From: Pseudomonadota bacterium
GTDB lineage: Bacteria > Pseudomonadota > Gammaproteobacteria > Burkholderiales > Rhodocyclaceae
DNA length: 35,195 nt
Direction: 5' to 3'
NCBI GenBank assembly: GCA_021849505.1
Contig: JAJZSW010000022.1
Location: 1-35,195, forward strand
In this document: positions 6,041-22,520 of the stretch, one piece after another
Position numbering within the stretch: position 1 is the stretch's first letter
How the letters are laid out: every line of letters begins with the position of its first letter
Program-made: the position numbers and the translations under genes
The notes under the pieces: model-generated
The model's input: only the letters and a program-made list of their open reading frames with translations
The model's database searches: none
What the model was told of the DNA's origin: nothing

Positions 6041-6951
6041 ACGGAAAGATCATGCTCGTCGGCCTCGGCCCGGGCAGCCACGACCACCTGACGGCGCGCG
6101 CCCGCGCCGCCATCGCCGAGGCCGACGTGGTCATCGGCTACGCCACCTACATCCGTCTCGTCGCCGAGCTGCTCGACGGCAAGGAAGTCGTGAAGAAGGG
6201 CATGACCGAGGAACTCGACCGCGCCGTCGAGGCCCTCGACCGCGCGCGCCAAGGGAAGAAAGTCGCGCTGGTGTCCTCGGGCGACGCGGGGGTGTACGGC
6301 ATGGCCGGGCCGACCTACGAGGTGCTGTTCCAGGCCGGCTGGACGCCCGATGCGGAGATCGAGGTCGAGATCGTGCCCGGCGCCTCGGCGCTCAACACCT
6401 GCGCCGCGCTGATCGGCGCGCCGCTGACGCACGACTTCTGCGCGATTTCGCTGTCCGACCTGCTGACGCCCTGGCCGGTCATCGCGCGCCGTCTCGATGC
6501 CGCCGCCGCCGCCGATTTCGTCGTCGCCCTCTACAACCCGAAGAGCGGCCGGCGCACCGGCCAGATCGTCGAGGCGCAGCGCCTCTTCCTGCGCCATCGC
6601 GATCCCGCCACGCCGGTCGCCGTCGTCAAGTCCGCCTACCGCGCCAAGCAGCGCATCGAGTTCGCCACGCTGGAACGGATGGCCGAATGCGAGATCGGCA
6701 TGCTCTCCACCGTGCTGATCGGCAACTCCACCACCTATGTCCGCGACGGCCTGATGGTGACGCCGCGCGGCTACGCCCAAAAATACGACGGCACGGGGGC
6801 GTCAAGGGAAGGCGAGCGCGCCGGCCGCTCGCTGTCGACGGGACTGGACGGCTGGCTGGCCGCCATCAGGGCAAGCGGCAAGAGCGCCGCCGAACTCGCG
6901 CGCGAGCACCGCCTGCCGGTCGATTACGTCGAGGCCGTGCTGGCGTCATGA
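6037..6951 (+). CDS. cbiH: Cobalt-precorrin-3 C17-methyltransferase (CbiH/CobJ) with C-terminal extension
   Basis: 304 residues. The first ~245 are the tetrapyrrole methylase that methylates C-17 and contracts the ring: LVGLGPGSHDHLTARA, VIGYATYIRLV, VALVSSGDAGVYGMAG, EIVPGASALNTCAALIGAPL and FVVALYNPKSGRR are all typical. After TYVRDGLMVTPRGY come about 55 extra residues with an Arg/Ser-rich linker and a short helical end (AAELAREHRLPVDYVEAVLAS) that I do not recognise as a named domain. The gene overlaps cobE upstream and cbiA downstream by four bases each. No ferredoxin-like domain is attached. Confidence 0.93.
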   Translation: MNGKIMLVGLGPGSHDHLTARARAAIAEADVVIGYATYIRLVAELLDGKEVVKKGMTEELDRAVEALDRARQGKKVALVSSGDAGVYGMAGPTYEVLFQAGWTPDAEIEVEIVPGASALNTCAALIGAPLTHDFCAISLSDLLTPWPVIARRLDAAAAADFVVALYNPKSGRRTGQIVEAQRLFLRHRDPATPVAVVKSAYRAKQRIEFATLERMAECEIGMLSTVLIGNSTTYVRDGLMVTPRGYAQKYDGTGASREGERAGRSLSTGLDGWLAAIRASGKSAAELAREHRLPVDYVEAVLAS

Positions 6952-8231
6952 TGGCAGCCTGCCCCGCGCTGCTCGTCGCCGCCCCGGCCTCCGGCCACGG
7001 CAAGACCACCGTGGTCGCCGCGCTCGCACGGCTGCACACACGGCTCGGTCGCACGGTGCGCATCTTCAAGTGCGGCCCGGACTTCCTCGACCCGATGATC
7101 CATGCGCTGGCCGTGGGCCATTCCTGCGAGAACATCGACTTCCGCATGTGCGGCGAGGAAGACGCGCGCTGGCGGCTGGCGCGCGCCGCGCGGGAAGCCG
7201 ACCTGATCCTCGTCGAAGGCGTGATGGGGCTTTACGATTCGGAGCCGACCGGCGCCGAATTGGCGCGCCGGCTGGGCCTGCCGATCCTGCTCGTCGTCGA
7301 TGCCGGCGCGATGGCCGGCAGCTTCGGCGCGGTGGCGTGGGGCCTCAAGCATTACCGGGAGGGGGCGCCGATCGCCCATGCGCTCGCCAATCGCGTCGGC
7401 AGCGACTACCACGCCGCGCTGTGCCGCGCGAGCCTGCCGGCGGACATCGCCTGGGCGGGAAGTCTGCCGCGCGACGCGGATGCCGCGCTGCCGGAGCGCC
7501 ACCTGGGCCTGCTGCCCGCCGCCGAAATCGCCGATCTCGACGCCCGGATCGAGCGCATGGCCGACCTGCTCGTCGCCACGCCGGCCGCCGAACCGCCGCC
7601 CGCCGTCGACTTTGCCGTCCTGTCAGCGCCGACTTTTGAACCGCTGCTGGCAGGCAAAACCATCGCCGTCGCCCGCGACGCCGCCTTCTGTTTCCTCTAT
7701 CCCGCCAACCTCGAATGCCTGGCGGCCATGGGTGCGCGGCTCGCCTTCTTCTCGCCGCTCGCCGATGTGGTGCTGCCCGACTGCGATGCCGTCTGGCTGC
7801 CCGGCGGCTATCCTGAACTGCATGCCGAGCGCCTTGCCGCCAACCGCGCCATGGCTGCCGCGCTGGCCGCGCATGTGGCGGCCGGCAAGCCGCTGCTGGC
7901 CGAATGCGGCGGCATGATGGTCTGCTTCGAATCGCTGCATACCGTCGCCGGAGAAAACCATGCGATGTTCGGCCTGCTGCCCGGCCAGACGCGCATGCAG
8001 GCCAGGCTCGCCGGTCTCGGCATGCTCACGGCAGAACTGCCCGAAGGCCGGCTCACCGGCCACACCTTCCACTACTCGACGGCCGCAACGCCGCTCGTCC
8101 CCATCGCGCAGGCCATGAAGGCGGCAGGCCGGGGCGGCGAGGCGATCCATCGCGTCGGCCGGCTCACCGCCAGCTACATGCATTTCTATTTCCCGTCGAA
8201 TCCCGATGCCGCGGCGCGGCTGTTCCTGTAA
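6948..8231 (+). CDS. cbiA: Cobyrinate a,c-diamide synthase (CbiA/CobB)
   Basis: 427 residues. It amidates the a- and c-carboxylates of cobyrinic acid using glutamine and ATP. The N-terminal half has the P-loop APASGHGKTT (residues ~12-21) and LILVEGVMGLYD. The C-terminal half is a class I-like glutaminase domain with the nucleophile in LAECGGMMVCF (Cys320) and a closing YMHFYFPSNP. ATG at 6948 overlaps the cbiH stop; a second ATG follows at once (MM start). The linker between the halves carries a dispersed repeat copy (7614-7636) read as AVLSAPTF. It is the last gene before the riboswitch, which begins 13 bases after its stop. Confidence 0.95.
   Translation: MMAACPALLVAAPASGHGKTTVVAALARLHTRLGRTVRIFKCGPDFLDPMIHALAVGHSCENIDFRMCGEEDARWRLARAAREADLILVEGVMGLYDSEPTGAELARRLGLPILLVVDAGAMAGSFGAVAWGLKHYREGAPIAHALANRVGSDYHAALCRASLPADIAWAGSLPRDADAALPERHLGLLPAAEIADLDARIERMADLLVATPAAEPPPAVDFAVLSAPTFEPLLAGKTIAVARDAAFCFLYPANLECLAAMGARLAFFSPLADVVLPDCDAVWLPGGYPELHAERLAANRAMAAALAAHVAAGKPLLAECGGMMVCFESLHTVAGENHAMFGLLPGQTRMQARLAGLGMLTAELPEGRLTGHTFHYSTAATPLVPIAQAMKAAGRGGEAIHRVGRLTASYMHFYFPSNPDAAARLFL
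7614..7636 (-). repeat. Dispersed 23-bp repeat, copy 2 (2 mismatches)
   Basis: Minus-strand match to the consensus at 21 of 23 positions, inside the inter-domain linker of cbiA. In the gene frame it reads AVLSAPTF, the same frame as the copies in cobS and the NYN gene. Confidence 0.85.
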
Positions 8232-8244
8232 AATCCGCCCCGAC

Positions 8245-8407
8245 ATCAGCATCCAGGAACACGGTGCAATTCCGTGGCGGGCCCGCCGCTGTAATCGGGG
8301 ACGGATGCCGCAGGGCCGGGGGGAACCCGGCCGGCCACTGCCGGGCAGCCTGCCGGCGGGAAGGCGCGGCAGATCCGGTCGATCCGAGAGCCAGAAGACC
8401 TGCTGAT
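8245..8407 (+). promoter_or_regulatory. Cobalamin (adenosylcobalamin) riboswitch aptamer
   Basis: The stretch holds the ordered landmarks of a B12 aptamer: GGTGCAATTCCGTGGC, then the core GCCGCTGTAATCGGGGACG, GCCACTGCCGGGCAGCCTG, GGGAAGGCGCGGCAGAT and the 3' box GAGAGCCAGAAGACCTGC. The ends pair as P1: ATCAGCA at 8245-8251 with TGCTGAT at 8401-8407. A strong intrinsic terminator follows after 24 bases and the peptide gene cbpA after 94. This indicates transcriptional shut-off of cbpA-cbpB-bluB when cobalamin is abundant. A weak TAAAAT -10-like box at 8229-8234, inside the cbiA stop region, could start the leader; no good -35 was seen. Confidence 0.93.
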
Positions 8408-8431
8408 TCAGTTTGAAGAAACCAATGGCAA

Positions 8432-8476
8432 GGGTTTCGTCGTCGCGCTGGCCGCGCGGCGGCGAAGCCCTTTTTT
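8432..8476 (+). terminator. Intrinsic terminator, riboswitch expression platform
   Basis: The left arm at 8432-8448 pairs with the right arm at 8454-8470 over 17 consecutive positions (three of them G-U), with the loop TGGCC, followed by six T at 8471-8476. It lies between the B12 aptamer and cbpA, so it is the expected off-switch. A competing antiterminator helix was not worked out. Confidence 0.9.
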
Positions 8477-8501
8477 CATTCCGGAACCGAGGAGAGTTTC
8501 C

Positions 8502-8657
8502 ATGTCGCATACCGCTCAGCCGCAGCAAACCCAGACCACCCCCGCCACTTCGCAGCCCACGGCCCAGCCTGCGGTGATCGCCAGCCGCCGACGCTGCGAC
8601 GCCGACGGCGTCGGCCTCTCGCACTACATCCTGATGGACCGGAAGCCGGCCCGATGA
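8502..8657 (+). CDS. cbpA: Putative RiPP precursor peptide, CbpA-like
   Basis: 51 residues from ATG at 8502, preceded by a good ribosome-binding site (GAGGAGAG, ~7 bases upstream). The N-terminal ~25 residues are rich in Gln, Thr, Pro and Ala, as in a flexible leader. The C-terminal part RRRCDADGVGLSHYILMDR is sharply different and holds the only Cys (residue 32). The stop overlaps the start of a radical SAM/SPASM gene (ATGA), and a B12 riboswitch lies upstream. This arrangement is typical of ribosomally made, radical-SAM-modified peptides. From memory, curated family collections name such a cobalamin-riboswitch-linked peptide CbpA and its enzyme CbpB; I could not check. The modification, mature product and function are unknown to me. 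The gene is easily missed because of its size. Confidence 0.75.
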   Translation: MSHTAQPQQTQTTPATSQPTAQPAVIASRRRCDADGVGLSHYILMDRKPAR

Positions 8658-9997
8658 CGCTGCAGCCGCTGGATATCGGGCACGCCGACTACGTCGCCAT
8701 CACCGACCCCGCCACCGCCTTCTGGGCGCTGGTGAGGAAGGATCGCCTGGCCGAGACGCTGGCCGGCGGCCCGCTGCTCGACGCCTACCGCGAGCGCGCG
8801 GCGGATTTCGCGCGCGAACTGCACGGCCTGCGCTTCGAGCTCAAGCCCTCGGCCGTCTATGTGAATCCGACCGAGCGCTGCAACCTCGATTGCACCTACT
8901 GCTACATCCCGCGCGACATGCGGCGCGACGGCGAGCACATGGCGGCCGACAGGCTGCTCGCGGCGCTGGAGCGGCTCAAGGCGTATTTCGCGACGACCCT
9001 GCCGGCCGGGCGCAAGCCGCGCGTCATCTTCCATGGCGCCGAGCCGCTGACCAACCGCGAAGCGCTGTTCGCCGCCATCGACGCCTGCCGCGACGACTAT
9101 ACGTTCGGCGTGCAGACCAACGCGACGCTGCTCGACGACGCGGCGCTCGCCTTCCTGACCGGCCGCGGCGTTTCGATCGGCCTCTCGCTCGACGGGCCGA
9201 CGGCCGACGTCACCGACGCCACGCGCCTGAGCTTCGGCGGCAAGAGCGTGCACGACAAGGTGCTGTCGGCGATGGACCGCCTGCGCGGCTACGACGCCTG
9301 GAGCGTGATTGCCACCTGCACGGCGAAGAATCTCGACCAGCTGGTGCCGCTGGTCGAGCTGTTCCATGCGCGCGAGGCGCCGACCTGCATGCTCAACGCC
9401 GTGCGCTGCACGCTGCCCGGCGCGCGCACCGTGAAGCCGGCCGACGCCGCGCTGGCGCACGCCTTCATCGCCGCCGTCGAGCGCAGCCACGCACTGTTCC
9501 GCGCGAGCGGGCGCAAGCTGGTGGTGGCCAACTTCGCCAACATCCTGCTGGCGATCCTGGCACCGACGGCGCGCCGGCTGATGTGCGACATCTCGCCCTG
9601 CGGCGGCGGCCGCGCCTTCTTCGCGCTGGCGCCCGACGGCGGCCTGTTCCCGTGCAGCGAGTTCATCGGCCTGCCCCAGTTCGAAGGCGGCAACCTGTTC
9701 CGCGATTCGATGGAGGATGTGCTCGCCAGCCCAGCCTTCGCCAAGGTGACCGGGCGCGACGTGGACAAGTTCGCGCCCTGCTCGACCTGTGCGATCCGCC
9801 ATTTCTGCGGCTCGCCCTGCCCGGCCGAAGCGCACGAGATGAACGGCGGCATGGAGAAGATCGGCGCCTTCTGCGGCTTCTACGAGGAGCAGGTGCGTTA
9901 CGCGCTGCGCCTGATCGCCGACGGCAAGGCCGGCGACTTCCTGTGGGACGGCTGGGATGCCGGTGTCGAAACCAGCTTCAGCGTGAACCTGCCATGA
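8654..9997 (+). CDS. cbpB: Radical SAM/SPASM peptide-modifying enzyme, CbpB-like
   Basis: 447 residues. The radical SAM cluster motif CNLDCTYC (Cys76, Cys80, Cys83) lies in a TERCNLDCTYCYIPRDMR context, followed by VIFHGAEPL and GLSLDGP, as in peptide-maturing radical SAM enzymes. The C-terminal SPASM-type region supplies Cys311 and Cys316 (CDISPC), Cys334 (PCSEF), Cys376, Cys379, Cys385 and Cys389 (CSTCAIRHFCGSPC) and Cys407, enough for two auxiliary Fe-S clusters. Enzymes of this layout modify short peptides encoded next door (thioether, C-C or related crosslinks). The start overlaps the stop of the 51-residue peptide and the end overlaps bluB, each by four bases. The chemistry and the reason for B12 control are inference; an anaerobic sulfatase-maturase-like role is less likely since no sulfatase is nearby. 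Confidence 0.85.
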   Translation: MTLQPLDIGHADYVAITDPATAFWALVRKDRLAETLAGGPLLDAYRERAADFARELHGLRFELKPSAVYVNPTERCNLDCTYCYIPRDMRRDGEHMAADRLLAALERLKAYFATTLPAGRKPRVIFHGAEPLTNREALFAAIDACRDDYTFGVQTNATLLDDAALAFLTGRGVSIGLSLDGPTADVTDATRLSFGGKSVHDKVLSAMDRLRGYDAWSVIATCTAKNLDQLVPLVELFHAREAPTCMLNAVRCTLPGARTVKPADAALAHAFIAAVERSHALFRASGRKLVVANFANILLAILAPTARRLMCDISPCGGGRAFFALAPDGGLFPCSEFIGLPQFEGGNLFRDSMEDVLASPAFAKVTGRDVDKFAPCSTCAIRHFCGSPCPAEAHEMNGGMEKIGAFCGFYEEQVRYALRLIADGKAGDFLWDGWDAGVETSFSVNLP

Positions 9998-10665
9998 CCG
10001 ACCACCGCTATTCCGAAACCGAAATCGCCGCCGTCGAGCGCGCCATCCGCGAGCGGCGCGACATGCGCCACTTCCTGCCCGATGCCTTGCCCGCAGGCCT
10101 GCTGGAACGCCTGATCGAGGCCGCTCACCTGGCGCCTTCGGTCGGCTACATGCAGCCCTGGCGCTTCATCCGCATCGCCGACCGCGACCTGCGCACGCGC
10201 ATTCACGCGCTGGTCGAGGCGGAACGGCTGGCCACGGCGGCGGCGCTGCCCAGCCGCAATGAGGAGTTCCTCCAGGTGAAGATCGAGGGCATCCGCGACT
10301 GTGCCGAGCTGCTGGTCGTCGCGCTGATGCCGGAGCGCGAACGCCACATCGTCGGCCGCCGCACGCTGCCTGAAATGGACATCGCCTCGGTCGGCTGCGC
10401 GATCCAGAACATGTGGCTGCTGGCGCGCGCCGAGGGCATCGGCCTCGGCTGGGTGTCGTTTTTCGATCCGCAGGCCTTGGCCGATCTACTGGAGATGCCG
10501 GATGGCGCGCGCCCGCTCGCCATCCTCTGCATCGGTCGCGTGCCGGCCTTCTACCCGCGCCCGATGTTCGAGGACGCCGGCTGGGGCAAGCGGCTGCCGT
10601 TGGCGGACGTGCTCTTCGAGAACCGCTGGAAAGTCGGCGCCGGCGGGACGGCGCCGGCGTATTGA
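9994..10665 (+). CDS. bluB: 5,6-dimethylbenzimidazole synthase BluB
   Basis: 223 residues, nitroreductase-like fold. BluB cleaves FMNH2 with O2 to form 5,6-dimethylbenzimidazole, the lower ligand of B12. Family hallmarks are RRDMRHF near the N-terminus (an Asp in this segment is essential in studied BluB proteins), APSVGYMQPWRFI, the central NEEFLQVKIEGIRDCAELL and GLGWVSFFDP. Its position in the riboswitch-controlled unit, with an ATGA overlap to cbpB, supports BluB over a general nitroreductase. The last residues [11 protein letters not shown] come from a dispersed repeat copy (10630-10652) that forms the C-terminal end of the protein. O2-dependent lower-ligand synthesis combined with an anaerobic-type corrin pathway suggests a facultative or microaerobic lifestyle. 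Confidence 0.92.
   Translation: MTDHRYSETEIAAVERAIRERRDMRHFLPDALPAGLLERLIEAAHLAPSVGYMQPWRFIRIADRDLRTRIHALVEAERLATAAALPSRNEEFLQVKIEGIRDCAELLVVALMPERERHIVGRRTLPEMDIASVGCAIQNMWLLARAEGIGLGWVSFFDPQALADLLEMPDGARPLAILCIGRVPAFYPRPMFEDAGWGKRLPLADVLFENRWKVGAGGTAPAY
10630..10652 (+). repeat. Dispersed 23-bp repeat, copy 3 (1 mismatch)
   Basis: 22 of 23 matches on the plus strand, ending 13 bases before the end of the bluB stop codon. In frame it reads KVGAGGTA, the frame shared with the copies in cobQ, cobT, cbiB and the YqiA-like gene. Confidence 0.9.
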
Positions 10666-10761: not shown

Positions 10762-11235
10762 TTATTCGCGCCAGACGCTGAAGACCAGGTCGGTCTTGGC
10801 GGCCTGCTCGGCATGGCAACCGAAACAGGCGGTCCTGGCCTGAGCGCCGACCGCGCGCTGCTTGGGATCGCCCTTGGCGAAACCCTCGAAGCCCCAGCCG
10901 CCGGTGTCCTTGAACTTTCGTCCGTCGCGCTGCATCACGGCGACGAGCTTGCGCGGTCCCTCGGCGATGGCGTTGCCGCCCTTGCTGGTCTCGAACAGGT
11001 CGAACACGATCACCGCTCCATCCGGGAAGCGGCCGCCCCGGTAGCCTTTCATGGCCTTGTCGTTGGCGTAGATGTGATGCAGCCCGCCGACCAGTTCGTG
11101 GAGCGGATGGCCTTCTTCCAGAATCAGGCTTTTGACGTGCGTCCAGTCGCGATAGCCGGTCGGATAGGCGACCTCGGCGGCGGCGACGTTCAAGGATGCA
11201 AGGGTCAGGCTTGCGGCAAGCAGCAGGGTCTTCAT
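10762..11235 (-). CDS. Cytochrome P460 family c-type heme protein, exported
   Basis: 157 residues. Residues 1-20 form a signal peptide (MKTLLLAASL... ending NVAAA), and the C-terminal CFGCH (Cys137-His141) is a c-type heme-attachment motif, so the protein should act in the periplasm. The body (YRDWTHVKSLILEEGHPLHE, GLHHIYANDKAMKGY, FPDGAVIVFDLFET) matches the cytochrome P460 family, whose studied members bind heme through an extra lysine crosslink and oxidise hydroxylamine or NO. Whether this member does so cannot be told. A good ribosome-binding site (GAGGAGAC) precedes the ATG. It is divergent from a MarR gene with a shared operator region. Confidence 0.82.
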   Translation of the reverse strand: MKTLLLAASLTLASLNVAAAEVAYPTGYRDWTHVKSLILEEGHPLHELVGGLHHIYANDKAMKGYRGGRFPDGAVIVFDLFETSKGGNAIAEGPRKLVAVMQRDGRKFKDTGGWGFEGFAKGDPKQRAVGAQARTACFGCHAEQAAKTDLVFSVWRE

Positions 11236-11345: not shown

Positions 11346-11927
11346 ATGCAAAACGAAACCCTGCGCGCGCTGGATGTCGCCGAACGTCTCGCCAACCTGG
11401 CGGAGGCACGCCTGAAGGGCGCGGTGGCGGAGCTGGGCCTGCAAGCGGCGCATGCCCGCATCCTGCTTTACCTCGCCGCCGCCAACCGCTATTCCAATAC
11501 GCCCCAGGCGGTAACCGACTATCTGGGGGTAACCAAGGGCACCGTGTCGCAAAGCCTGATTCTGCTGGAAGGCAAGGGGCTGCTCGAGCGCGTCCAGGAC
11601 GACCGCGATCGGCGCGTGGTGCGCCTGGCCCTGACGCCGGCCGGCCGCCAGGTGTGCGCGCACGTCGCGCGCGACGGCCTGGAGCGGTTCGGCGCCGCTT
11701 GCCGCCTGCCCGCCGGGCTTGTCGACGGCCTCCTTGGGATGCTGCGTTGCCTGCAGGAGCAGGAAGGCCGGCGCGGTTTTGGCGTTTGCCGCAGCTGCCG
11801 CCATCACACCGCGGCGGGACGCGGTTACTGGCGTTGCGGGCTGACCGGCGAGCGACTGCTGGCCGCGGAGCGGGAACGCATCTGCCGCGAACACGAGGCG
11901 GTGTCTTCGGATGCCATTGCCGGGTGA
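11346..11927 (+). CDS. MarR-family transcriptional regulator with C-terminal Cys/His-rich motif
   Basis: 193 residues. Residues ~10-135 are a MarR winged helix-turn-helix: HARILLYLAAANRYSNTPQAVTDYLGVTKGTVSQSLILLEGKGLLERVQDDRDRRVVRLALTPAG is split here as dimer helix, recognition helix (GVTKGTVSQSLILLE) and wing (DDRDRRVVRLALT). The unusual part is the tail: CRSCRHH (Cys148, Cys151, His153-154), WRCGLTGE (Cys164) and CREH (Cys180, His183), which could bind a metal, Fe-S cluster or heme. The ATG falls at the expected transcription start of its promoter (7 bases after the -10 box) and has no ribosome-binding site, so the mRNA may be leaderless. It likely represses itself and the divergent P460 gene; the ligand is unknown. 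Confidence 0.85.
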   Translation: MQNETLRALDVAERLANLAEARLKGAVAELGLQAAHARILLYLAAANRYSNTPQAVTDYLGVTKGTVSQSLILLEGKGLLERVQDDRDRRVVRLALTPAGRQVCAHVARDGLERFGAACRLPAGLVDGLLGMLRCLQEQEGRRGFGVCRSCRHHTAAGRGYWRCGLTGERLLAAERERICREHEAVSSDAIAG

Positions 11928-12857: not shown

Positions 12858-13792
12858 TCCATTTCCTTCAGGGCGTATTCGAGTCGTTGCCAGGCATCTT
12901 CGCTGCCCGGCAGACCAAGGCGCAGTGCGGCGGGTGCGTCGAGCCGGCGGACCAGTATGCCGCGCCGGGCCAATTGTTCATGGATTGCGGCGGCGCGCGG
13001 CGTGGCGAGGGTTTGAAACAGCGCGCAGCCGGTTGGCGTGCCGAGGCAGCCCAGCAGCGCGGCGAGGCGGCGGGACGCGACCTGTAGCCGTTCCCGCTGC
13101 GCCGCCTGCCAGACGCGATCGGTCAGCGCCCGCCGCGCCGCCCAGCGCGCGGGATGGGTCACCGCCCAGGGGCCGAGGGTTTCACGCAAACGGTCGAGCA
13201 GTTCCGGCGCGCCGAACGCAAACCCGACGCGCGCGCCGGCCAGCCCGAAGAACTTGCCGAGCGAGCGCAGCACGACAATATTCTCCGCGTCATTGGCGGC
13301 GGCCAGCGACTCCATCGGTTCCGCGTCGATGAAGGCTTCGTCGACGACCAGCAGGCGCAGCGCCCGGGCGCGTTCGAGCAGTGCGTTGCGTGAAAATCTC
13401 TCGCCGGTCGGATTGTTCGGGTTGCACAGCACCGCGTAGTCGGCCGGCTCGTCCCAACCGACGACTGTGTGGCCGGCGGCCTGCCAGGCGGCGGGATGCT
13501 CGGTGTAGATGGGCCGGGGCATGGCCACGCGGCCGGACGAAAATAGCCGCGGCAGCGCCTGGATCGCGGCCTGCGAACCGGGCAGCGCGAGCAGATTCGC
13601 TGTGCCGTAATAACCGTGCGCGGCGTCCTCCAACCCGTCATCTTCTTCGGGCAGGCGCTGCCAGACCTCGGCGGGTACGGCGGGCAACGGATAGGGCCAG
13701 GGGGCGATGCCGGTGGAGAGATCGAGCCACTCGGCGCGCGGGATGCCGAAGCGCCGCGCGGCCTCGCCCAGTCTGCCGCCGTGTTCAAGCAA
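12854..13792 (-). CDS. cobD: L-threonine-O-3-phosphate decarboxylase (CobD/CobC), PLP enzyme
   Basis: 312 residues from a TTG start. It makes (R)-1-amino-2-propanol phosphate, the linker of the nucleotide loop. The start [65 protein letters not shown] and the PLP-lysine segment [20 protein letters not shown] are typical. I chose the TTG at 13790-13792 because the family normally begins at LEHGG, a GGGAG box lies just upstream, and it overlaps the cbiB stop by eight bases. A longer frame to 13924 would only translate cbiB sequence out of frame. The end is coupled to btuF. Confidence 0.9.
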
Positions 13793-14699
13793 GGACGAGG
13801 CTCCCGGCGACAAAGAGGCCCACCCAAAGCCACTGGCCGCGCTCGACCAGCGCCACGGCACGGCCGATGTCGGCGGCAGTTGCCGTCCCGCCAGCGCCGA
13901 GTTTTGGCCGCTCTTCGACGGCACCGTGGTAACTCGCCGCGCCGCCGAGACAAACGTTCAGCGCCCCCGCACCGGCCGCCATCACGGGGCCGGCGTTCGG
14001 GCTGCTCCAGGCGCCAGCCTGCGCGCGCCAGCAGGCCAGCGCGCTGCGCGTGCGGCCAAGCAGCGCGTAGGTCAGCGCGGTCAGCCGCGCGGGGATGAAG
14101 TTGAGCCCGTCGTCGAGACGCGCCGCAGCCCAGCCGAAATGCAGGCGCCGCGCGTCCTTGTAGCCCCACATCGCGTCGAGCGTGTTGGCCAGCCGGAATA
14201 GCACCGCGCCGGCACCGCCCAGGACGCAGAACCAGAACAGCGCGCCGAACACCGCGTCGTTGCCGTTCTCCAGTACCGATTCGACGGCGGCCGTCGCCAC
14301 GCCGGTTTCGTCCAGCTGCGTCGTGTCGCGCGAGACGATCATGCCGACCGCCTGGCGCGCCGCCGGCAGATCGCCCGCCGCCAGTGGTGCGGCAATGGCG
14401 CGCGCGTGTTCGCCAAGACTGCGGCCACCGAGCGCGAGCCAGAGCAGCAACGCGTCGACAAGCGGATGGGAAAGCCACATGGCGAGTGCGACCAACGGCA
14501 GGACGATGGCGCTCCACGCCACGAGGCCGCGCAGCCGATTGCCGGCGGCATGCCCGGGCGCGCCTTGCCGCAGCAGGCGTTCCGCCGTGTCGGCGAGCCG
14601 GCCGAAGCCAACCAGCGGATGCCAGCGGCGCGGCTCGCCGAGCAGGCGGTCGAGCAAAACGCCGGCGAGGGCGGCGGCTGGAGCGGAAGGAAGGGACAT
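13785..14699 (-). CDS. cbiB: Adenosylcobinamide-phosphate synthase CbiB (membrane)
   Basis: 304 residues, several hydrophobic helices. CbiB joins aminopropanol phosphate to adenosylcobyric acid at the inner membrane. The N-terminal [72 protein letters not shown] and [15 protein letters not shown] are family hallmarks. The loop before the last helix carries a dispersed repeat copy (13882-13904) read as KLGAGGTA. It is the first gene of a minus-strand trio with cobD and btuF. Confidence 0.93.
13882..13904 (-). repeat. Dispersed 23-bp repeat, copy 4 (1 mismatch)
   Basis: Minus-strand match at 22 of 23 positions inside cbiB. In the gene frame it reads KLGAGGTA (Val replaced by Leu through the single mismatch). 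Confidence 0.88.
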
Positions 14700-14842: not shown

Positions 14843-17833
14843 ATGGAAACCAACCGCCGCCTGGCCGAATTGCTGCTTGCGCTGGTGCCGGAAGACGGCA
14901 GCCCGGTCGGCAATGCCGCGCTCAAACAAGCATTCGTTGCCGCCGCCGCGACCGCCGGCCTGAAAACCTCCGACACCTTGTTCGAGCAGATCAAGGACGG
15001 GCTCGTTACCGTCGGCGCGCTGGTCAAGGGCAAGGGGCGCGGCGGTTCGGTGCGCCGCTTGCTCGCCGAGGAGTTGGGCGGTTTCGACCTGGAGGCGCAG
15101 GACGCGCCGACCGCGGCAACCGCAGCCGCGAAAGCCGCCAAGCCGGGCAAGGCCAAAACGGCACCGCGTGCCCCGGCGGGCGAGGCGGCGCAGATTCTCA
15201 GTTACCGCCATCCCGAAAAGCGCAAGAACAATCCCGAAGTCGGCATGGTCACGCCGGACACCGACCCCGACGCGCCGCGCACCGTCTGGCAACACGATCC
15301 GCATCTCGACCCGACACTCTCCTGGACCGGCAAGGCCGAGCGCCTGAGCTTCGAGGTCGACACCGTCAGCCTGCACGTGCACGAGCGCATCGACCCGATG
15401 AGCATCCTCGCCGCCGTGAGGAAGGATCAGGCAAAGGGGAGAGACGGCAAAGCCAAGGCCATCCAGCCCGGCCTCTTCGACGCCCCCTTCGAGAGCCTGC
15501 CGCTCAGGGATGCCATCGATTTCTACAAACACGACAAAGGCTGGAGCAACCGCCTCGTCGCCGGCGACAGCCTGCTGGTGATGAACTCGCTGCTGCAAAA
15601 GGAAAGCATGGCCGGCCGCGTGCAGATGATCTACCTCGACCCGCCCTACGGCATCAAGTACGGCTCCAACTTCCAACCCTTCGTGAACAAGCGCGACGTG
15701 AAGGACAGGAAGGACGAAGACCTCACCCAAGAGCCGGAGATGATCAAGGCCTTCCGCGACACCTGGGAGCTGGGGATTCACTCGTATCTGACCTACCTGC
15801 GCGACCGGCTGCTGCTGGCGAAGGAACTGCTCAACGAAACCGGCAGCGTGTTCGTGCAGATTTCGGATGAGAATTTGCACCACACCAAGGAGATTCTGGA
15901 TGAGGTTTTCGGTGCAGCAAATGCAGTAAGCGTGATTACCGTAAGAAAGACGGGCGCAGTAAGCAGCCCAGACGCGCGGGTGAATTCGCTTGCCACCATC
16001 GGAGACTTCATTATCTGGTACGCAAAGGACAAGTCCAAGCTCAAGTATTCGCAACTGTTTCTGGATAAGTCAGACAGTGGAGCAGCCGAGTTGCAGTATC
16101 GCCTTAAAGACGAAGGGGGCTGGTATCAGTCGGTTTCGATCGAATCAAACGGCTATGCTGATTCATTCCACTTTCCAATCACTTTGGGCGGCCGAGAGTT
16201 TCGGCCCGCTGCGACAAGGCATTGGAGTACAACCGAAGCTGGCATTTATAGGGCTGCTAGGGCGGGAAGGGTATTGATAACGCCTGGAAAGCTGAGGTTC
16301 AAGAAATATCTCGAAGATTTCCCCGTGTCTCCCATTGCGAATATCTGGACTGACATGATGGGTGCCGCCGGTCTCATCTATGTTGTCCAAACAAACGAAC
16401 GAATCATCGAGCGCTGCCTCCTGATGACCACCGACCCCGGCGATCTGGTGCTCGATCCGACTTGCGGGTCGGGGACGACGGCGTATGTGGCTGAGAAGTG
16501 GGGGCGGCGGTGGATTACTTGCGATACGTCGCGGGTGGCGGTGACGCTGGCGAAGCAGCGCTTGATGACGGCGAGTTTCGATTACTTCGAGTTGCGCTAT
16601 CCGCACGAGGGCCTGCGCGGCGGATTTATCTACAAGACGGTGCCGCACGTCACGCTGAAGTCCATCGCCAACAACCCGGAGATCGACGAGATTTACGCGC
16701 GCCTGCACCCCGCCGTCGAGACGGCGCTGGCGGCACTGAACCAGGCGATCAAGGGCGAACTCAAGGAATGGGAAGTGCCGTTCGATATGCCGGCCGACTG
16801 GCCTGCGTCGGCCAAGGTGCATTTCGAGGCGTTCCACGCCGCGCGGCAGTCGATGCAGAAGGCGATGGATCGCTCAATCGCCGACCACGCCGACCAGGAA
16901 ACGCTCTACGACCAGCCGCAGAAGTCGAAGACCAAGCTGCGCGTGACCGGGCCGTTTTCGGTGGAGGCCGTGCCTTTCCCGACCGTGCAGTCGCTGGACG
17001 ATGAAAGTCGGCGCTGGCGGGACGGCACCGCCGACATCACCATCGCCCGCTCGGGCGAATCCTCGCGCCAGCACCAGTGGCGCGACGAATTGTTGAAGAC
17101 CGGCATCCGCGGGCGCGGCGGGCAGATATTGAAATTCGCGGAACTGGAAACCCTGCCCGGCACGCGCCACCTGCATGCGACCGGCCACCTCGACAGCGGC
17201 GAGCGCGTGGTGGTGAGCTTCGGCCCCGAGCATGCGGCGCTGGAGCAGCGCGCCGTGGCGCTGGCGCTCACCGAGGCGGGCGAACTGTTCCCGTTGCCGA
17301 AGATGATCGTCTTCTGCGCCTTCGCCTTCGACCCCGAAGCGGCCAAGGACATCGACCACCTGAAGGGCATCGTCGCCCTCAAGGCGCAGATGAACACCGA
17401 CCTCCTGACCGAAGACCTGAAGAAGGCGCGCGCCAGCAACCAGTCGTTCTGGCTGATGGGCCAGCCGGACGTGGAAGTGAGGACGCGCAAGGATGGCCGC
17501 TTCGAGGTCGAAGTGCATGGCTTCGACTATTTCGATACGGCGAAGGGCGAACTGGTCTCGGGCGGCAAGGGCAAGATCGCGCTCTGGTCGCTCGACACGG
17601 ACTACGACGAACGCTCGCTGTTCCCGCGCCAGGTGTTCTTCCCGCTCGCCGGCAAGGGCGAGGGCTGGGAAAAGCTCAAGCGCGACATCCGCGCCGAACT
17701 CGACGAGGCGCAACTCGACGCCTTCCACGGCACGGTCTCGCTCCCCTTCGAGGCGGGAGAAAACAGGAAAGTCGCGGTGAAGATCGTTGACGACCGGGGG
17801 CTCGAGTCGTTGAAGATCGTGGCGCTGGACTGA
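14843..17833 (+). CDS. mod: Type III-like DNA methyltransferase (Mod), beta class
   Basis: 996 residues. It would methylate an adenine in a specific site and act as the recognition subunit of the system. The catalytic motif IYLDPPYG (Asp266) precedes the SAM-binding motif LDPTCGSGTTA (from Asp538), with the target-recognition region between them; this order defines beta-class N6-adenine or N4-cytosine enzymes such as Type III Mod. An N-terminal ~100-residue helical domain with an Ala/Lys-rich linker and a long C-terminal region (after ~570) exceed the usual 600-700 residues and resemble the larger Mod proteins paired with BPTD_3080-type nucleases. AAGAGG precedes the ATG. The recognition region (about 15880-16440) is much poorer in G+C than its flanks. 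A perfect dispersed repeat copy lies at 17004-17026. Confidence 0.9.
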   Translation: METNRRLAELLLALVPEDGSPVGNAALKQAFVAAAATAGLKTSDTLFEQIKDGLVTVGALVKGKGRGGSVRRLLAEELGGFDLEAQDAPTAATAAAKAAKPGKAKTAPRAPAGEAAQILSYRHPEKRKNNPEVGMVTPDTDPDAPRTVWQHDPHLDPTLSWTGKAERLSFEVDTVSLHVHERIDPMSILAAVRKDQAKGRDGKAKAIQPGLFDAPFESLPLRDAIDFYKHDKGWSNRLVAGDSLLVMNSLLQKESMAGRVQMIYLDPPYGIKYGSNFQPFVNKRDVKDRKDEDLTQEPEMIKAFRDTWELGIHSYLTYLRDRLLLAKELLNETGSVFVQISDENLHHTKEILDEVFGAANAVSVITVRKTGAVSSPDARVNSLATIGDFIIWYAKDKSKLKYSQLFLDKSDSGAAELQYRLKDEGGWYQSVSIESNGYADSFHFPITLGGREFRPAATRHWSTTEAGIYRAARAGRVLITPGKLRFKKYLEDFPVSPIANIWTDMMGAAGLIYVVQTNERIIERCLLMTTDPGDLVLDPTCGSGTTAYVAEKWGRRWITCDTSRVAVTLAKQRLMTASFDYFELRYPHEGLRGGFIYKTVPHVTLKSIANNPEIDEIYARLHPAVETALAALNQAIKGELKEWEVPFDMPADWPASAKVHFEAFHAARQSMQKAMDRSIADHADQETLYDQPQKSKTKLRVTGPFSVEAVPFPTVQSLDDESRRWRDGTADITIARSGESSRQHQWRDELLKTGIRGRGGQILKFAELETLPGTRHLHATGHLDSGERVVVSFGPEHAALEQRAVALALTEAGELFPLPKMIVFCAFAFDPEAAKDIDHLKGIVALKAQMNTDLLTEDLKKARASNQSFWLMGQPDVEVRTRKDGRFEVEVHGFDYFDTAKGELVSGGKGKIALWSLDTDYDERSLFPRQVFFPLAGKGEGWEKLKRDIRAELDEAQLDAFHGTVSLPFEAGENRKVAVKIVDDRGLESLKIVALD
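17004..17026 (+). repeat. Dispersed 23-bp repeat, copy 5 (perfect)
   Basis: Exact match to the consensus over all 23 positions, inside mod. In the gene frame it reads SRRWRDGT, a frame not used by the other copies, so the DNA sequence rather than the encoded peptide is what is conserved. Confidence 0.92.
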
Positions 17834-17846
17834 AAACGAGAAGCCC

Positions 17847-19727
17847 ATGAACGCCCGCGAAATTTTCGACCGGCTGGTCAATCTGGACGAAACCGAACGC
17901 ATCGAAGCCAAGCGTTCCGCCGAGATCGGCAATTCGGTCATGGAAACCGTCTGCGCCTTTGCCAACGAACCGGGTTTGGGCGGCGGGCATCTGCTGCTGG
18001 GCGTGGCGCGCGAGGAAATGGCGCTGTTCCCGTCCTACGAAGTCGTCGGCATCGACAGTCCGGACAAGCTCGCCAGCGAGCTGGCGACCCGCTGCCGGAG
18101 CGAATTCAATGTGCCGGTGCGCGTGGATATCCGGCAGGAAGCTTTGAACGACAAGGTCGTTCTGCTGGTCTTCGTGCCCGAGGCACAGCCGGGAGAGAAG
18201 CCGGTTTATTTCAAAAGCCAGGGCTTGCCGCGCGGAGCGCTCCGGCGTATCGGGCCGACCGACCAGCGATGTACCGAGGACGACCTGACGGTTTTCTACG
18301 AAGGTCGCGGCAGCGAGGCCTACGACTTCAATGCCGTTGCGGATGCGACCCTCGACGACATCGACCCGGACGCCATCGCGGATTACCGCAAGGCGCGGGC
18401 CGAGGCGAACCCGGATGCGGAGGAACTCAGGTGGAGCGACCCCGAGCTGTTGCTGGCGCTCGGTTGCGTCCGGCCGCTCGAAGGCCGGCAGGTGCCTACC
18501 GTCGCCGGCCTCATGCTGTTCGGCAAAGCTATCGCGCTGCGGCGCTTCTTTCCCATGATGCGCGTGGATTACATCCGCGTGCCGGGGCGCGAATGGGTGC
18601 CCGACCCCGAAAAACGCTTCGACAGCATCGAGATACGCGATCCGCTGATCCGTCTTATCCGCAGGGCGACGGCAGCGGTGATGGACGACCTGCCCAAGGG
18701 GTTTTCCTTGCCCGAGGGTCAATTACAGCGTCAGGACGTCTATCGCGTCCCGCAGCGCGTGATCCGCGAGGCCATCGTCAACGCCGTCATGCACCGGAAC
18801 TACCGCGCGCAGAGCCCCATTCAGATCATCCGCTATAGCAACCGGCTGGAAATCATCAATCCGGGGTTCTCACTCAAGTCGCCCGAACACCTTGGCGAGC
18901 CAGGCTCTTTGTCGCGCAATCCGCGCATCGCCGCCGTGCTGCACGAAAGTCGCTTTGCCGAAACCAAGGGCAGCGGCATTCGCGTCATGCGGGACATGAT
19001 GGCCCAGGCCGGCCTGACTCCGCCGGCCTTCGAATCCGACCGGGCGCAGGACAAATTCAGCGCCCGCTACCTGTTCCACCACTTTCTGGGGCCGGACGAC
19101 ATCGCCTGGCTGAGCCGATTCAAGGACTTGGCCCTGACCGACGAGGAGGCCCGGGCGCTGATCTGGGTCAGGGAGGTCGGCGCCATCGACAACGCCACCT
19201 TGCGGGAACTCAACCGGGTGGACCCGCTCGCGGCCAGCCAGAAACTTCGCCGCTTGCGCGATGCCCGCCTGCTGAAACAAATGGGCAAGGGATCGGCCAC
19301 GTATTACATCCCCACCGATCAACTGCTGGGCGATGGCTTACCTCCCCAGTCAGAAACCTTATCTCCGGACCTCGTGGGCTTATCTCCGGACCTCGTGGGC
19401 TTATCTCCGGACCTCGTGGGCTTATCTCCGGACTCGGAGCGGGATGTACTGCTCGCCGAACTCGCTCCAGAAATACGGGAGCGGGTAACACAACTCGGGC
19501 AGCGCAGTCGCGACAAGGATCGCCTCAAGGAGACGCTTCTGGCGATATGCGGGCAGCGCTATTTCAGCGCGGACGAACTGGCCCGCATCACGGGCCGCAA
19601 TGCCGAATACCTGCAAAAGGGCTATTTATCCCCCTTGATCGCCGAGGGCCAGCTTGCCTATCGCTATCCGGACGATCCGACCCATCCTCAGCAGGCCTAC
19701 GGCTTGGCTGAGTCGATCGCAGGGTAA
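17847..19727 (+). CDS. AlbA_2 (Schlafen-type) DNA-binding domain plus GHKL-like ATP-binding domain protein, restriction-linked
   Basis: 626 residues. The N-terminal ~130 residues (ERIEAKRSAEIGNSVMETVCAFANEPGLGGGH is the start of it; then LLLGVAREE) look like the AlbA_2/Schlafen DNA-binding domain. The middle (VIREAIVNAVMHRNYR, LEIINPGFSLKS, RNPRIAAVLHESRFAETKGSGIRVM) is the HATPase_c_4 module found in proteins often misannotated as RecG-like helicases. A winged-helix-like part follows (ALIWVREVGAIDNATLRELNRVD). Near the C-terminus a 7-residue unit LSPDLVG is repeated (see 19358-19433). It sits 13 bases after mod and 3 bases before res, so it belongs to the restriction locus, perhaps as a regulator or accessory factor; its exact role is unknown. 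Confidence 0.8.
   Translation: MNAREIFDRLVNLDETERIEAKRSAEIGNSVMETVCAFANEPGLGGGHLLLGVAREEMALFPSYEVVGIDSPDKLASELATRCRSEFNVPVRVDIRQEALNDKVVLLVFVPEAQPGEKPVYFKSQGLPRGALRRIGPTDQRCTEDDLTVFYEGRGSEAYDFNAVADATLDDIDPDAIADYRKARAEANPDAEELRWSDPELLLALGCVRPLEGRQVPTVAGLMLFGKAIALRRFFPMMRVDYIRVPGREWVPDPEKRFDSIEIRDPLIRLIRRATAAVMDDLPKGFSLPEGQLQRQDVYRVPQRVIREAIVNAVMHRNYRAQSPIQIIRYSNRLEIINPGFSLKSPEHLGEPGSLSRNPRIAAVLHESRFAETKGSGIRVMRDMMAQAGLTPPAFESDRAQDKFSARYLFHHFLGPDDIAWLSRFKDLALTDEEARALIWVREVGAIDNATLRELNRVDPLAASQKLRRLRDARLLKQMGKGSATYYIPTDQLLGDGLPPQSETLSPDLVGLSPDLVGLSPDLVGLSPDSERDVLLAELAPEIRERVTQLGQRSRDKDRLKETLLAICGQRYFSADELARITGRNAEYLQKGYLSPLIAEGQLAYRYPDDPTHPQQAYGLAESIAG
19358..19433 (+). repeat. 21-bp tandem repeat, 3.6 copies, in-frame
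   Basis: Three identical 21-base units start at 19358, 19379 and 19400 (each CTTATCTCCGGACCTCGTGG plus G), followed by 13 bases of a fourth. They encode LSPDLVG repeats in the linker before the last helical domain of the AlbA_2 gene. The unit is a multiple of three, so copy-number changes would lengthen or shorten the linker without a frameshift. Confidence 0.95.
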
Positions 19728-19730
19728 ACC

Positions 19731-22520
19731 GTGGTGCAGCAATCCCTTATCCTCAATTCCCCATTCGCCGCTCCAACCCGCCACTGGCAGCAGGGCGCCG
19801 ACGGGCGTCTGGCGCTCGTCGAATCGCGCCGCCCGGCCGGCTACGAGATTTTCGACGTGCGCAACAACACCCGGCGCATCGAAAATCTCGACCGGGTGAA
19901 CGAGATTCGCGAACGGGTGGCTGCCTGGCGCGCGGCGGGCTACGACGGCGCCACCGCCGTGACCCGACGCTTGCTCGAACACTGGCATGATCGCTCGGCG
20001 CGCCAGTTTCCCTTTTACTTCTGTCAGCTGGAGGCCATCGAGACACTGATCTGGTGGCAGGAGGCGGCTCCGGAATTCCGCCAGGGCGTGTTCGTCCCCG
20101 GCGATGGCGGTCCTTGGGAACGCCTGTGCTGCAAGATGGCGACGGGAACGGGCAAGACCGTGGTGATGGCGATGCTCGTTGCCTGGCAGGTGCTCAACGC
20201 GCTGGCTTATCCGAAGCGGGGCAAGGATTTTTCCCGCGCCTTGTTCGTGGTGGCGCCGGGCTTGACGGTCAAGGATCGGCTGCGGGTGCTGTATCCGGGG
20301 GAACCAGGCAATGCCTATGACCAGTTCGGGCTTTGCCCGTCCGAGGCCATGCGCCAGCAACTCAACCGTGCGGAAATCCTGGTCGAGAATTGGCATGCCC
20401 TGATGCCCCTGGCGGCGCCCGAACGTTCGGTGGTCAAGAAGGGCCGGGAATCGGACGAGGCATTTGCGCGCCGGGTGCTGGGCAAGCTGGCGGCGTACAA
20501 GGATATCGTGGTTCTCAACGACGAGGCGCACCACGCCTATCGCGTGCCCGCCGAGGCCAAGATCAGCCGCAAGGAGGCGCTGGATGCCGGCATCGACCTC
20601 GACGAGGCAACGCGCTGGATCGAGGGTCTGGATCGGCTCCACAAGACGCGGCGCATCAATCGCGCCTTCGATTTGTCCGCCACGCCTTTCGCGCCCACGG
20701 GCAAGGCCAGCACCGAGGCCGGCCTGTTCGGCTGGATCGTGTCCGACTTCGGCCTCAACGACGCCATCGAGGCCGGACTCGTGAAAACGCCGCGCGTGGT
20801 GGTGCGCGACGATGCCCTGCCGGACGCGCGCACGCTGCGGCCCAAGCTCTATCACATCTATCGCGACGCCGAGGTCGCCGACGACTTGAACCGCAAGGCC
20901 GAGGCGTATGAGCCGCTGCCCAAGCTGGTGCAGGATGCCTATACCTTGCTTGGCGCCGACTGGCGAGCCGCCGCGGCCGACTGGCGGGCGGCAGGGCACC
21001 CGTCGCCGCCGGTGATGCTGACGGTCTGCAATCGCACCGAGACGGCGGCGCGCGTCGAGCACTATCTGTCCAAGGGTCATGCCCATTGGCCGGAGTTGCA
21101 TGCGCCGGAACGCACGCTGCGCGTCGATTCGAAGGTGCTCGACAAGGCCGAGATCGGCGAGACGGCGACGGCCGACAAGGATTACGAGGCAAAACTGGCG
21201 GCTATCGTCGAAGCGGCGGGGATTCCCGCCGAACGCAAGGTGCGCCTGCGCAATCTGAAAAAAGAGGAACTGCTGCGGGAGATGGTCGATAACGTCGGCA
21301 AGCCCGGCACGGTCGGCCAGGATCTGCAAAGCGTGGTTTCCGTGGCCATGCTCTCGGAAGGCTGGGATGCCAAGAACGTAACCCACATCATGGGCTTGCG
21401 CGCCTTTACCTCGCAGCTTCTGTGCGAACAGGTGATCGGGCGCGGCTTGCGTCGGGTCAACCACGATCTCGACGATAACGGTTTTTTCCGGGCCGAGTAT
21501 GTGAATGTCTTCGGCGTGCCGCTGTCGGTATTTCAGGATGTGGGGGCCGGCGGCGAGGCGCCGCCGCCGCCGAAGCCGAGTACCCAGATCGAATCGCGGC
21601 CCGAGCGCAATGCGCTGGAAATTCGCTGGCCCAATGTATTGCGCGTGGAGTCCGTGCTGCGCCCGACATTGGAGGTCGACTGGAGCGTCGTTGCGGCGCT
21701 CGCGCTCGATCCCGCCACCACCCCGATTGTCGCGGAGATCGCGCCGGCGCTGGGCGGCGCGGCGGACTTGGGCAAGGCGACAAAGATCGATTTGGCCTTG
21801 CTGCCGGAAGAGTTCCGTCTGCAACGCCTGATTTTCAAAGCGGCAGCCAAGGCGTTCGACGCAATGCATCACGGCTTCTCGGGCAACCGGGAATGGCTGG
21901 TGTTCCAGTTGATCCGTCTTGTCGAAATATTTCTCGACGGCGACAAGATCGAGATTCCCTCGTTGTTCCATCGGGAGCCGCTACGCAAGCGCATTCTGAT
22001 TGCATTGAACCTGGATAGGATCGTCCAGCATCTGATGCGCCATGTGACCGAGCAGAATCGGGAGCGGCAGGAACCGGTGTTCGACGAGGAAAACCCCATT
22101 GGCTCGACGCGCGCGATGCCGACCTGGTATACCACCAAGCCGAATCTCGCCACGACGAAGTCGCAGATCAGCCATGTGGTGGGAGACAGCGCCTGGGAAG
22201 GCTATGCGGCGAACCTGTTCGAATCGAGCAACCGGGTGCTGGCCTATGCCAAGAACGATCATCTCGGCTTCGAGATTTTCTATTTGTGGAATGGCGTGCG
22301 TCGCCGCTTTGTGCCCGATTTCCTGATTCGCCTGGCGAATGGCAAGACGCTGGTGCTGGAAATCAAGGGCGAAGACTCGGAACAGAACCGCGCCAAGCGA
22401 GCGGCGCTGGATGCCTGGGTGAAAGCGGTCAATGCCAAGGGCGGTTTCGGCGTCTGGACTTGGGACGTGGCATTCGAGCCGGCACGGATTCGAGACATTC
22501 TCGAAGCGCAGGGGGCATGA
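19731..22520 (+). CDS. res: Type III-like restriction endonuclease/translocase (Res), BPTD_3080-type
   Basis: 929 residues from GTG at 19731 (a second GTG follows). The helicase part shows Walker A in [16 protein letters not shown] (from residue ~136), [14 protein letters not shown], the Walker B/DEAH box [12 protein letters not shown] (Asp264), [31 protein letters not shown] and the motif VI region [15 protein letters not shown]. The C-terminal nuclease site is [19 protein letters not shown] (Asp863, Glu877, Lys879), a PD-(D/E)xK arrangement. It would cut unmethylated DNA with Mod. From memory, NCBI calls such proteins BPTD_3080 family restriction endonucleases. It is only 3 bases from the AlbA_2 gene and overlaps cobQ by four bases at its end. 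Confidence 0.9.

What the first reader, a model, noticed from the sequence alone, without database searches (positions are those of the whole stretch)
8245..10665. Vitamin-B12-riboswitch-controlled RiPP locus (peptide + radical SAM/SPASM) coupled to bluB
Seen: a B12 aptamer, a 17-bp terminator stem with six T, then a 51-residue peptide gene, a radical SAM/SPASM gene and bluB, each joined by ATGA overlaps. Known: B12 riboswitches normally control corrinoid uptake, synthesis or B12-independent isozymes; SPASM enzymes next to short peptides build crosslinked RiPPs. I recall database names CbpA/CbpB for such a pair but know of no assigned product or function. Inference: when B12 is scarce the cell makes a modified peptide together with the lower-ligand enzyme, so the product may act in cobalt or corrinoid capture, signalling, or competition for corrinoids.
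Basis: partly seen in the sequence, partly recalled or inferred. Interest (0 to 1): 0.93.

Follow-up and report, generated by a model that had tools for sequence, protein, structure and literature searches.

The report
B12-switched modified-peptide gene pair
A vitamin-B12-sensing RNA sits in front of two genes, a tiny peptide and an iron-sulphur enzyme that should modify it, and the same trio recurs in many distantly related bacteria with the peptide core almost unchanged, pointing to an unknown peptide product made when B12 runs short.

Summary
The window has a cobalamin riboswitch (RF00174, 73.1 bits; 8230-8421), a strong terminator (8431-8476), a 51-aa peptide, a radical SAM/SPASM enzyme and bluB, joined by ATGA overlaps. 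NCBIfam names the pair CbpA (TIGR04164, cobo_pep) and CbpB (TIGR04163); my searches listed no paper on them. New here is how tight the unit is. In 80 named-genome loci a CbpA core lies upstream of cbpB in 80 of 80. A B12 riboswitch lies directly before cbpA in 73 of 78 testable loci, 3 more sit inside a riboswitch-headed cbi operon, 2 have none. In a phylum sample CbpA and CbpB occur in the same 11 genomes. The core (VIAxRKxCxADGxGLSHYxLMDK) is nearly invariant under labels of eight phyla, and two Sedimenticola precursors carry it twice. The coupling to bluB is not general: only the window and two close relatives have it. Eighteen of 77 carrier genomes lack both ring-synthesis markers tested, yet 15 of these have CobS, so the product is not simply a part of corrin-ring building. 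Best reading: a conserved modified peptide made when corrinoid is scarce, most likely for corrinoid or cobalt capture or handling. Product and activity are unknown.

The parts
8230..8421 (+). cobalamin riboswitch aptamer (RF00174)
   Evidence: cmscan 73.1 bits, E 2.3e-16, full model 1-189 (again in the whole-genome scan)
8431..8476 (+). intrinsic terminator: 18-bp stem, 5-nt loop, six T; expression platform
   Evidence: fold -35.0 kcal/mol; 0 of 370 shuffles of such segments reach -25
8489..8496 (+). ribosome-binding site GAGGAGAG of cbpA
   Evidence: read from sequence
8502..8657 (+). cbpA, modified peptide precursor, 51 aa
   Evidence: TIGR04164 51.4 bits, cut-off 35
8574..8648 (+). conserved CbpA block, residues 25-49 (VIASRRRCDADGVGLSHYILMDRKP)
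   Evidence: TIGR04164 positions 1-25; near-invariant in 87 distinct blocks
8654..9997 (+). cbpB, radical SAM/SPASM peptide maturase, 447 aa
9994..10665 (+). bluB, 5,6-dimethylbenzimidazole synthase; operon partner in this small clade only
   Evidence: TIGR02476 240.2 bits, cut-off 150; such adjacency in 3 of 72 testable loci
6948..8231 (+). cobB/cbiA-like cobyrinate a,c-diamide synthase; last gene of the upstream cbi operon, ends where the aptamer begins
   Evidence: Pfam GATase_3 and CbiA; gene call

Best explanation
This is a riboswitch-cbpA-cbpB cassette. With enough corrinoid, the aptamer binds it and the terminator stops transcription before cbpA. When corrinoid is scarce, read-through makes CbpA and CbpB. 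CbpB, a radical SAM enzyme with a SPASM set of Cys for two auxiliary Fe-S clusters, grips CbpA by the segment VIAxRK, perhaps through its small N-terminal domain, and changes the core xCxxxGxGLSHYxLMD, probably by a cross-link that uses the invariant Cys or the His-Tyr pair. The modified peptide of about 25 residues then acts as a whole in or for the producing cell: most likely it binds corrinoid or cobalt and so helps capture, salvage or hand on scarce corrinoid. Shown here: anatomy, family membership, conservation, riboswitch linkage. Inferred from established family knowledge: B12 switching and peptide modification (about 0.9). Guessed: the chemistry of the change and the corrinoid/cobalt-ligand role (about 0.4).
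Confidence: 0.42

Rival explanations
1. The peptide is the precursor of a small cofactor, as PqqA is for PQQ: CbpB makes the first bond, host proteases cut out a few residues (GLSHY part), and the cofactor serves an enzyme that stands in for a B12-dependent one.
For: Core conserved across distant bacteria, mostly a two-gene unit. B12 riboswitches are known to repress B12-independent isozymes (established knowledge).
Against: No further modifying enzyme or peptidase was seen among the recurring neighbour clusters annotated. Two Sedimenticola precursors carry the whole ~23-residue block twice, including the flanking charged residues, which fits a product that keeps the block. No isozyme gene was recognised next to the pair.
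Confidence: 0.25
2. The modified peptide works inside corrin synthesis itself, for example as a cobalt carrier for CbiX or as a partner of BluB.
For: cbpAB lies between cbiF and cbiX, with the cobalt transporter gene cbiM upstream, in L053, L054 and L064, and next to bluB in the window, L043 and L045. CbiC is enriched in carriers.
Against: 18 of 77 carrier genomes have neither CbiC nor CbiD, among them Sedimenticola hydrogenitrophicus (G997, not titled a MAG) and the three genomes of one clade (G983, G991, G1001). BluB over cut-off in only 49 of 77 carriers (no background was measured). Most of the 18 are MAGs and may be incomplete.
Confidence: 0.18
3. A secreted peptide for signalling or for competition over corrinoids.
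For: Tandem cores occur in some secreted-peptide precursors (recalled). An ABC-2 transporter gene set lies near cbpAB in four loci.
Against: Core nearly invariant under eight phylum labels, unlike bacteriocins (recalled); no exporter or immunity gene beside the pair in most loci.
Confidence: 0.1
4. Chance or artefact: an unrelated small ORF between a cbi-operon riboswitch and a radical SAM gene.
For: Short ORFs are common in GC-rich DNA.
Against: Peptide over curated cut-off, present in 80 of 80 loci, synonymous variation in an invariant core.
Confidence: 0.01

Closest known systems
CbpA/CbpB of NCBIfam (TIGR04164 cobo_pep / TIGR04163 rSAM_cobopep)
   Same: Both proteins score over the curated cut-offs; same gene order as in 80 of 80 relatives.
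   Different: Nothing essential: the window is a member. The NCBIfam lines seen here give a name, no product or function. The bluB link is special to the window's small clade.
SCIFF peptide and maturase CteB (TIGR03974; PDB 5WGG/5WHY)
   Different: TIGR03974 78 bits against a cut-off of 425; SCIFF has six Cys (recalled), CbpA of the window has one; SCIFF is not known for B12 control (recalled).
Dynobactin maturase DynA and ranthipeptide maturase PapB (NF041298, NF047865)
   Same: Next-best NCBIfam matches of CbpB (112.6 and 105.4 bits).
   Different: Far under their cut-offs (450 and 340); no CX3D/E acceptor rule (recalled for PapB): position Cys+3 is neither D nor E in 11 of 87 blocks.
PQQ (PqqA/PqqE) and mycofactocin
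   Same: Short conserved peptide and SPASM enzyme giving a product for the cell itself.
   Different: PqqE 48.3 against 381.35, mycofactocin 48.4 against 265 bits; no further pathway genes recognised here.
Cobalamin riboswitch regulons (btuB, cbi operons, metE, nrd; recalled)
   Same: Same RNA family, mostly with a terminator platform.
   Different: The regulated gene is a RiPP precursor; no such case showed in the papers listed.

Membership tests
Cobalamin riboswitch RF00174 | covariance score over the gathering cut-off | tested here: met
   73.1 against 31.5 bits
Cobalamin riboswitch RF00174 | binds a cobalamin and changes expression | not testable with these tools
   needs binding and RNA assays
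CbpA TIGR04164 | 25-residue profile over curated cut-off | tested here: met
   51.4 against 35 bits
CbpB TIGR04163 | full-length profile over curated cut-off | tested here: met
   693.3 against 375 bits, 428 of 428 positions
CbpB TIGR04163 | CX3CX2C cluster motif and seven SPASM Cys (motif rules recalled) | tested here: met
   C76, C80, C83 and C316, C334, C376, C379, C385, C389, C407 invariant in 35 of 35 rows
RiPP | genetic: short precursor beside its maturase | tested here: met
   80 of 80 loci; same 11 genomes
RiPP | chemical: precursor is modified | not testable with these tools
   needs mass spectrometry
RiPP recognition element (RRE) in CbpB | winged-helix leader-binding domain | tested here: inconclusive
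SCIFF/CteB TIGR03974 | score over cut-off | tested here: not met
   78 against 425 bits
PapB ranthipeptide maturase NF047865 | score over cut-off | tested here: not met
   105.4 against 340 bits
DynA dynobactin maturase NF041298 | score over cut-off | tested here: not met
   112.6 against 450 bits
PqqE TIGR02109 | score over cut-off | tested here: not met
   48.3 against 381.35 bits
BluB TIGR02476 | score over cut-off | tested here: met
   240.2 against 150 bits

The most novel reading that the evidence does not exclude
CbpAB makes a peptide-based corrinoid or cobalt ligand (a ribosomal 'B12-ophore' or intracellular corrinoid carrier): a RiPP whose synthesis is switched by the very vitamin it handles, kept almost unchanged across many phyla.
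Probability: 0.22. Interest if true: 0.88.

Novelty: new member of a known kind. Interest (0 to 1): 0.64.

Why it matters
B12 riboswitches are known for uptake, synthesis and isozyme genes (established knowledge). Here one leads, with strong conservation across distant bacteria, to a modified peptide of unknown function. The riboswitch gives a ready assay condition (B12 starvation), the precursor can be as short as 34 residues with one Cys (L099), and cultured strains carry it (for example Azospira oryzae DSM 21223, Dechloromonas denitrificans ATCC BAA-841, Rhodoblastus acidophilus DSM 137), so both product and role can be tested directly.

Tried and rejected
Literature: TIGR04163/TIGR04164/cobopep gave 0 papers; riboswitch + SPASM + radical SAM gave 1 paper, by its title on antisense drugs (listing only). 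Broader searches listed only the top of larger sets: 20 of 71, 20 of 129, 15 of 46, 15 of 1,904, 12 of 936; I saw titles and abstract starts, none on this pair. PMC9062424 was searched by terms, no mention. The paper 10.1128/JB.00040-11 is not held. That 'cobo' in the NCBIfam name reflects its curators' notice of a cobalamin link is my guess and comes from no call.

Other attempts: clustering of all six-frame ORFs was swamped by shadow ORFs and replaced by a home-made gene caller, which misses short genes (cbpA itself in many loci), so operon tables show mostly longer neighbours; only about 30 recurring neighbour clusters were annotated, one representative each. A NodI-like ABC ATPase cluster (14 loci within 10 kb) and the ABC/ABC2 genes near cbpAB in L060, L061, L071 and L073 (in L061 one starts about 90 nt after cbpB on the same strand) were not pursued; they could be an exporter in that group. 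p-Cresol-type lower-ligand supply from the core Tyr was considered and rejected because Phe replaces Tyr in 4 of 87 blocks. Transfer between lineages: CbpB is missing from the 11 other same-genus genomes listed, but the tree largely follows class, so I make no firm transfer claim. The first translation of the peptide was one base out of frame and was replaced. Families absent from the rows shown are not excluded.

Full report
1. Observation. The window carries one Rfam match over gathering score, a cobalamin riboswitch at 8230-8421 + (73.1 bits, E 2.3e-16). It begins at the end of the cobB/cbiA-like gene (6948-8231). Behind it lies a strong intrinsic terminator (8431-8476, hairpin -35.0 kcal/mol, six T), then a ribosome-binding site and a 51-codon ORF (8502-8657), a 447-aa radical SAM/SPASM gene (8654-9997) and bluB (9994-10665), with ATGA overlaps at both joints. 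NCBIfam assigns the peptide to TIGR04164 'modified peptide precursor CbpA', the enzyme to TIGR04163 'peptide-modifying radical SAM enzyme CbpB' and the third gene to BluB, all over the curated cut-offs.

2. Is the peptide real? A CbpA core ORF lies upstream of cbpB in 80 of 80, its end 9 to 373 nt before the start of the tblastn match. GLSH is the same in 87 of 87, Arg -13 and Cys -10 in 86 of 87; the one misfit is a one-residue insertion in L114 that still holds the Cys. The search pattern itself asked for Cys, G-x-G and S, but of 123 records only two gave no hit, a riboswitch-only locus (L001) and a contig cut inside cbpB (L041). The invariant Leu uses six codons and each invariant Gly four, so selection acts on the protein. 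Two Sedimenticola precursors (L076, L085) carry the block twice, which marks off a unit of about 23 residues; some precursors are barely longer than the block (L099, 34 residues).

3. Is the riboswitch part of the unit? Whole-genome RF00174 scans of the carriers gave hits in 37 of 37 and 39 of 40 genomes. Mapped to the loci and corrected by cmscan of 11 loci: 73 of 78 testable loci have the aptamer directly before cbpA. L053, L054 and L064 lie about 3.5-6.3 kb inside an operon headed by one. L058 and L118 have none. L089 and L117 have under 300 nt upstream and are not counted. All 69 sites that rest on mapped coordinates hold the B12 box. Terminator platforms: 50 of 74 segments have a hairpin of -25 kcal/mol or better before a T run, against 0 of 370 shuffles; the looser cut of -10 gives 53 of 74 against 57 of 370. 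The loci without a terminator are mostly Alphaproteobacteria, where a translational platform is likely (inference). Exception: cbpA/cbpB annotated on plasmid pHY1 of Methylovirgula, the only hit in the plasmid collection, with no RF00174 over gathering score in 17 kb.

4. Do the two proteins go together? In the phylum draw CbpB occurs in 11 of 398 genomes and CbpA in 11 of 396, and these are the same 11 handles. Distribution is patchy (window's genome counted): order 4 of 300, family 29 of 297, and none of the 11 other same-genus genomes listed. Record titles of the 80 loci, read through NCBI ranks, name Pseudomonadota, Thermodesulfobacteriota, Myxococcota, Planctomycetota, Nitrospirota, Verrucomicrobiota, Lentisphaerota and Chloroflexota; many are MAGs, so labels are those of the submitters.

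5. Neighbours. The unit usually stands alone: of 72 loci (window included) with sequence downstream, the next called gene is on the other strand in 40; a same-strand gene within 60 nt exists in only 6 (window, L043, L045 with bluB; L053, L054, L064 with cbiX). The gene caller misses very short genes. Identified neighbours within the loci include B12 genes (cbiX, cbiC, cbiD, cbiET, cbiF, cbiG, cbiM, cobA, cobB, cbiB, cobU, cobS, bluB) beside unrelated ones such as kinases, GGDEF proteins and ABC genes. BluB over cut-off occurs somewhere in 49 of 77 carrier genomes; its background was not measured.

6. Ring synthesis or something else? CbiC/CobH (used in both pathways, established knowledge) is found in 58 of 77 carriers and CbiD in 53 of 77 (52 over cut-off); the background is 87 of 200 genomes, about 77 of 190 without the known carriers (Fisher p 2e-7, not corrected for kinship or for the different phyla). 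Eighteen carriers have neither. Of these, 15 have CobS, among them Sedimenticola hydrogenitrophicus (G997) and three genomes of one clade (G983, G991, G1001); against this, the other Sedimenticola carrier (G989) has CbiC and CbiD. I gave 38 of the 77 carriers to the CobS search; 35 of 38 have it. So carriers look like corrinoid users that finish cobamides, but need not make the ring, though most of the 18 are MAGs. That weakens a role in cobalt insertion or ring building and favours acquisition, salvage, handling or replacement.

8. Mechanism. Low corrinoid, terminator read-through, CbpA and CbpB, modified peptide (regulation inferred from the RNA family; modification inferred from the enzyme family). 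A near-invariant core argues for a product that serves the maker rather than a weapon. The control logic of B12 riboswitches leaves two broad roles: help to get or handle corrinoid/cobalt, or replace B12. The doubled blocks, the lack of recognised further modifying enzymes and the salvage-only carriers lean me to the first, with modest confidence. An ABC-2 gene set near cbpAB in four loci keeps export open.

9. Known or new? The pair is a named NCBIfam family, so the window is a new member of a known kind. No paper on it was among those listed, and the library holds only open-licence papers.

Noticed in passing
window 14843-22520: A type III restriction-modification-like module (MTase_III 555 bits, AlbA_2/Schlafen-type protein, ResIII protein) sits inside the cobalamin cluster between cbiB (13785-14657) and a cobQ/cbiP-like gene (22517-23965).
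   Followed up: partly
G000 contig C2:6509-7102 and C2:9668-9872: The genome has a second CbiC gene on another contig with its own strong B12 riboswitch (114.4 bits), so two cbi clusters may exist.
   Followed up: no
window 10762-11235 - and 11346-11927 +: A cytochrome P460 family gene and a MarR-type regulator directly follow bluB.
   Followed up: no
L123 7804-9383 (Methylovirgula sp. HY1 plasmid pHY1): Plasmid copy of cbpA/cbpB without a detectable B12 riboswitch, about 2 kb from pqqA, pqqD and pqqE.
   Followed up: partly
L060, L061, L071, L073: NodI-like ABC ATPase, ABC-2 membrane and alpha/beta-hydrolase genes lie near cbpAB in these four loci; in L061 an ABC-2 gene starts about 90 nt after cbpB.
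   Followed up: no
L046 and L064; L050 and L051; L078 and L079: Three genomes carry two cbpAB copies each; in one (G961) the two are of different subtypes, one alone and one inside a cbi operon.
   Followed up: partly
L076 and L085: CbpA precursors with two complete core blocks, both in Sedimenticola.
   Followed up: yes
L064 5092-5230: Group II intron match (RF02003) about 300 nt before the B12 riboswitch of a cbi operon.
   Followed up: no
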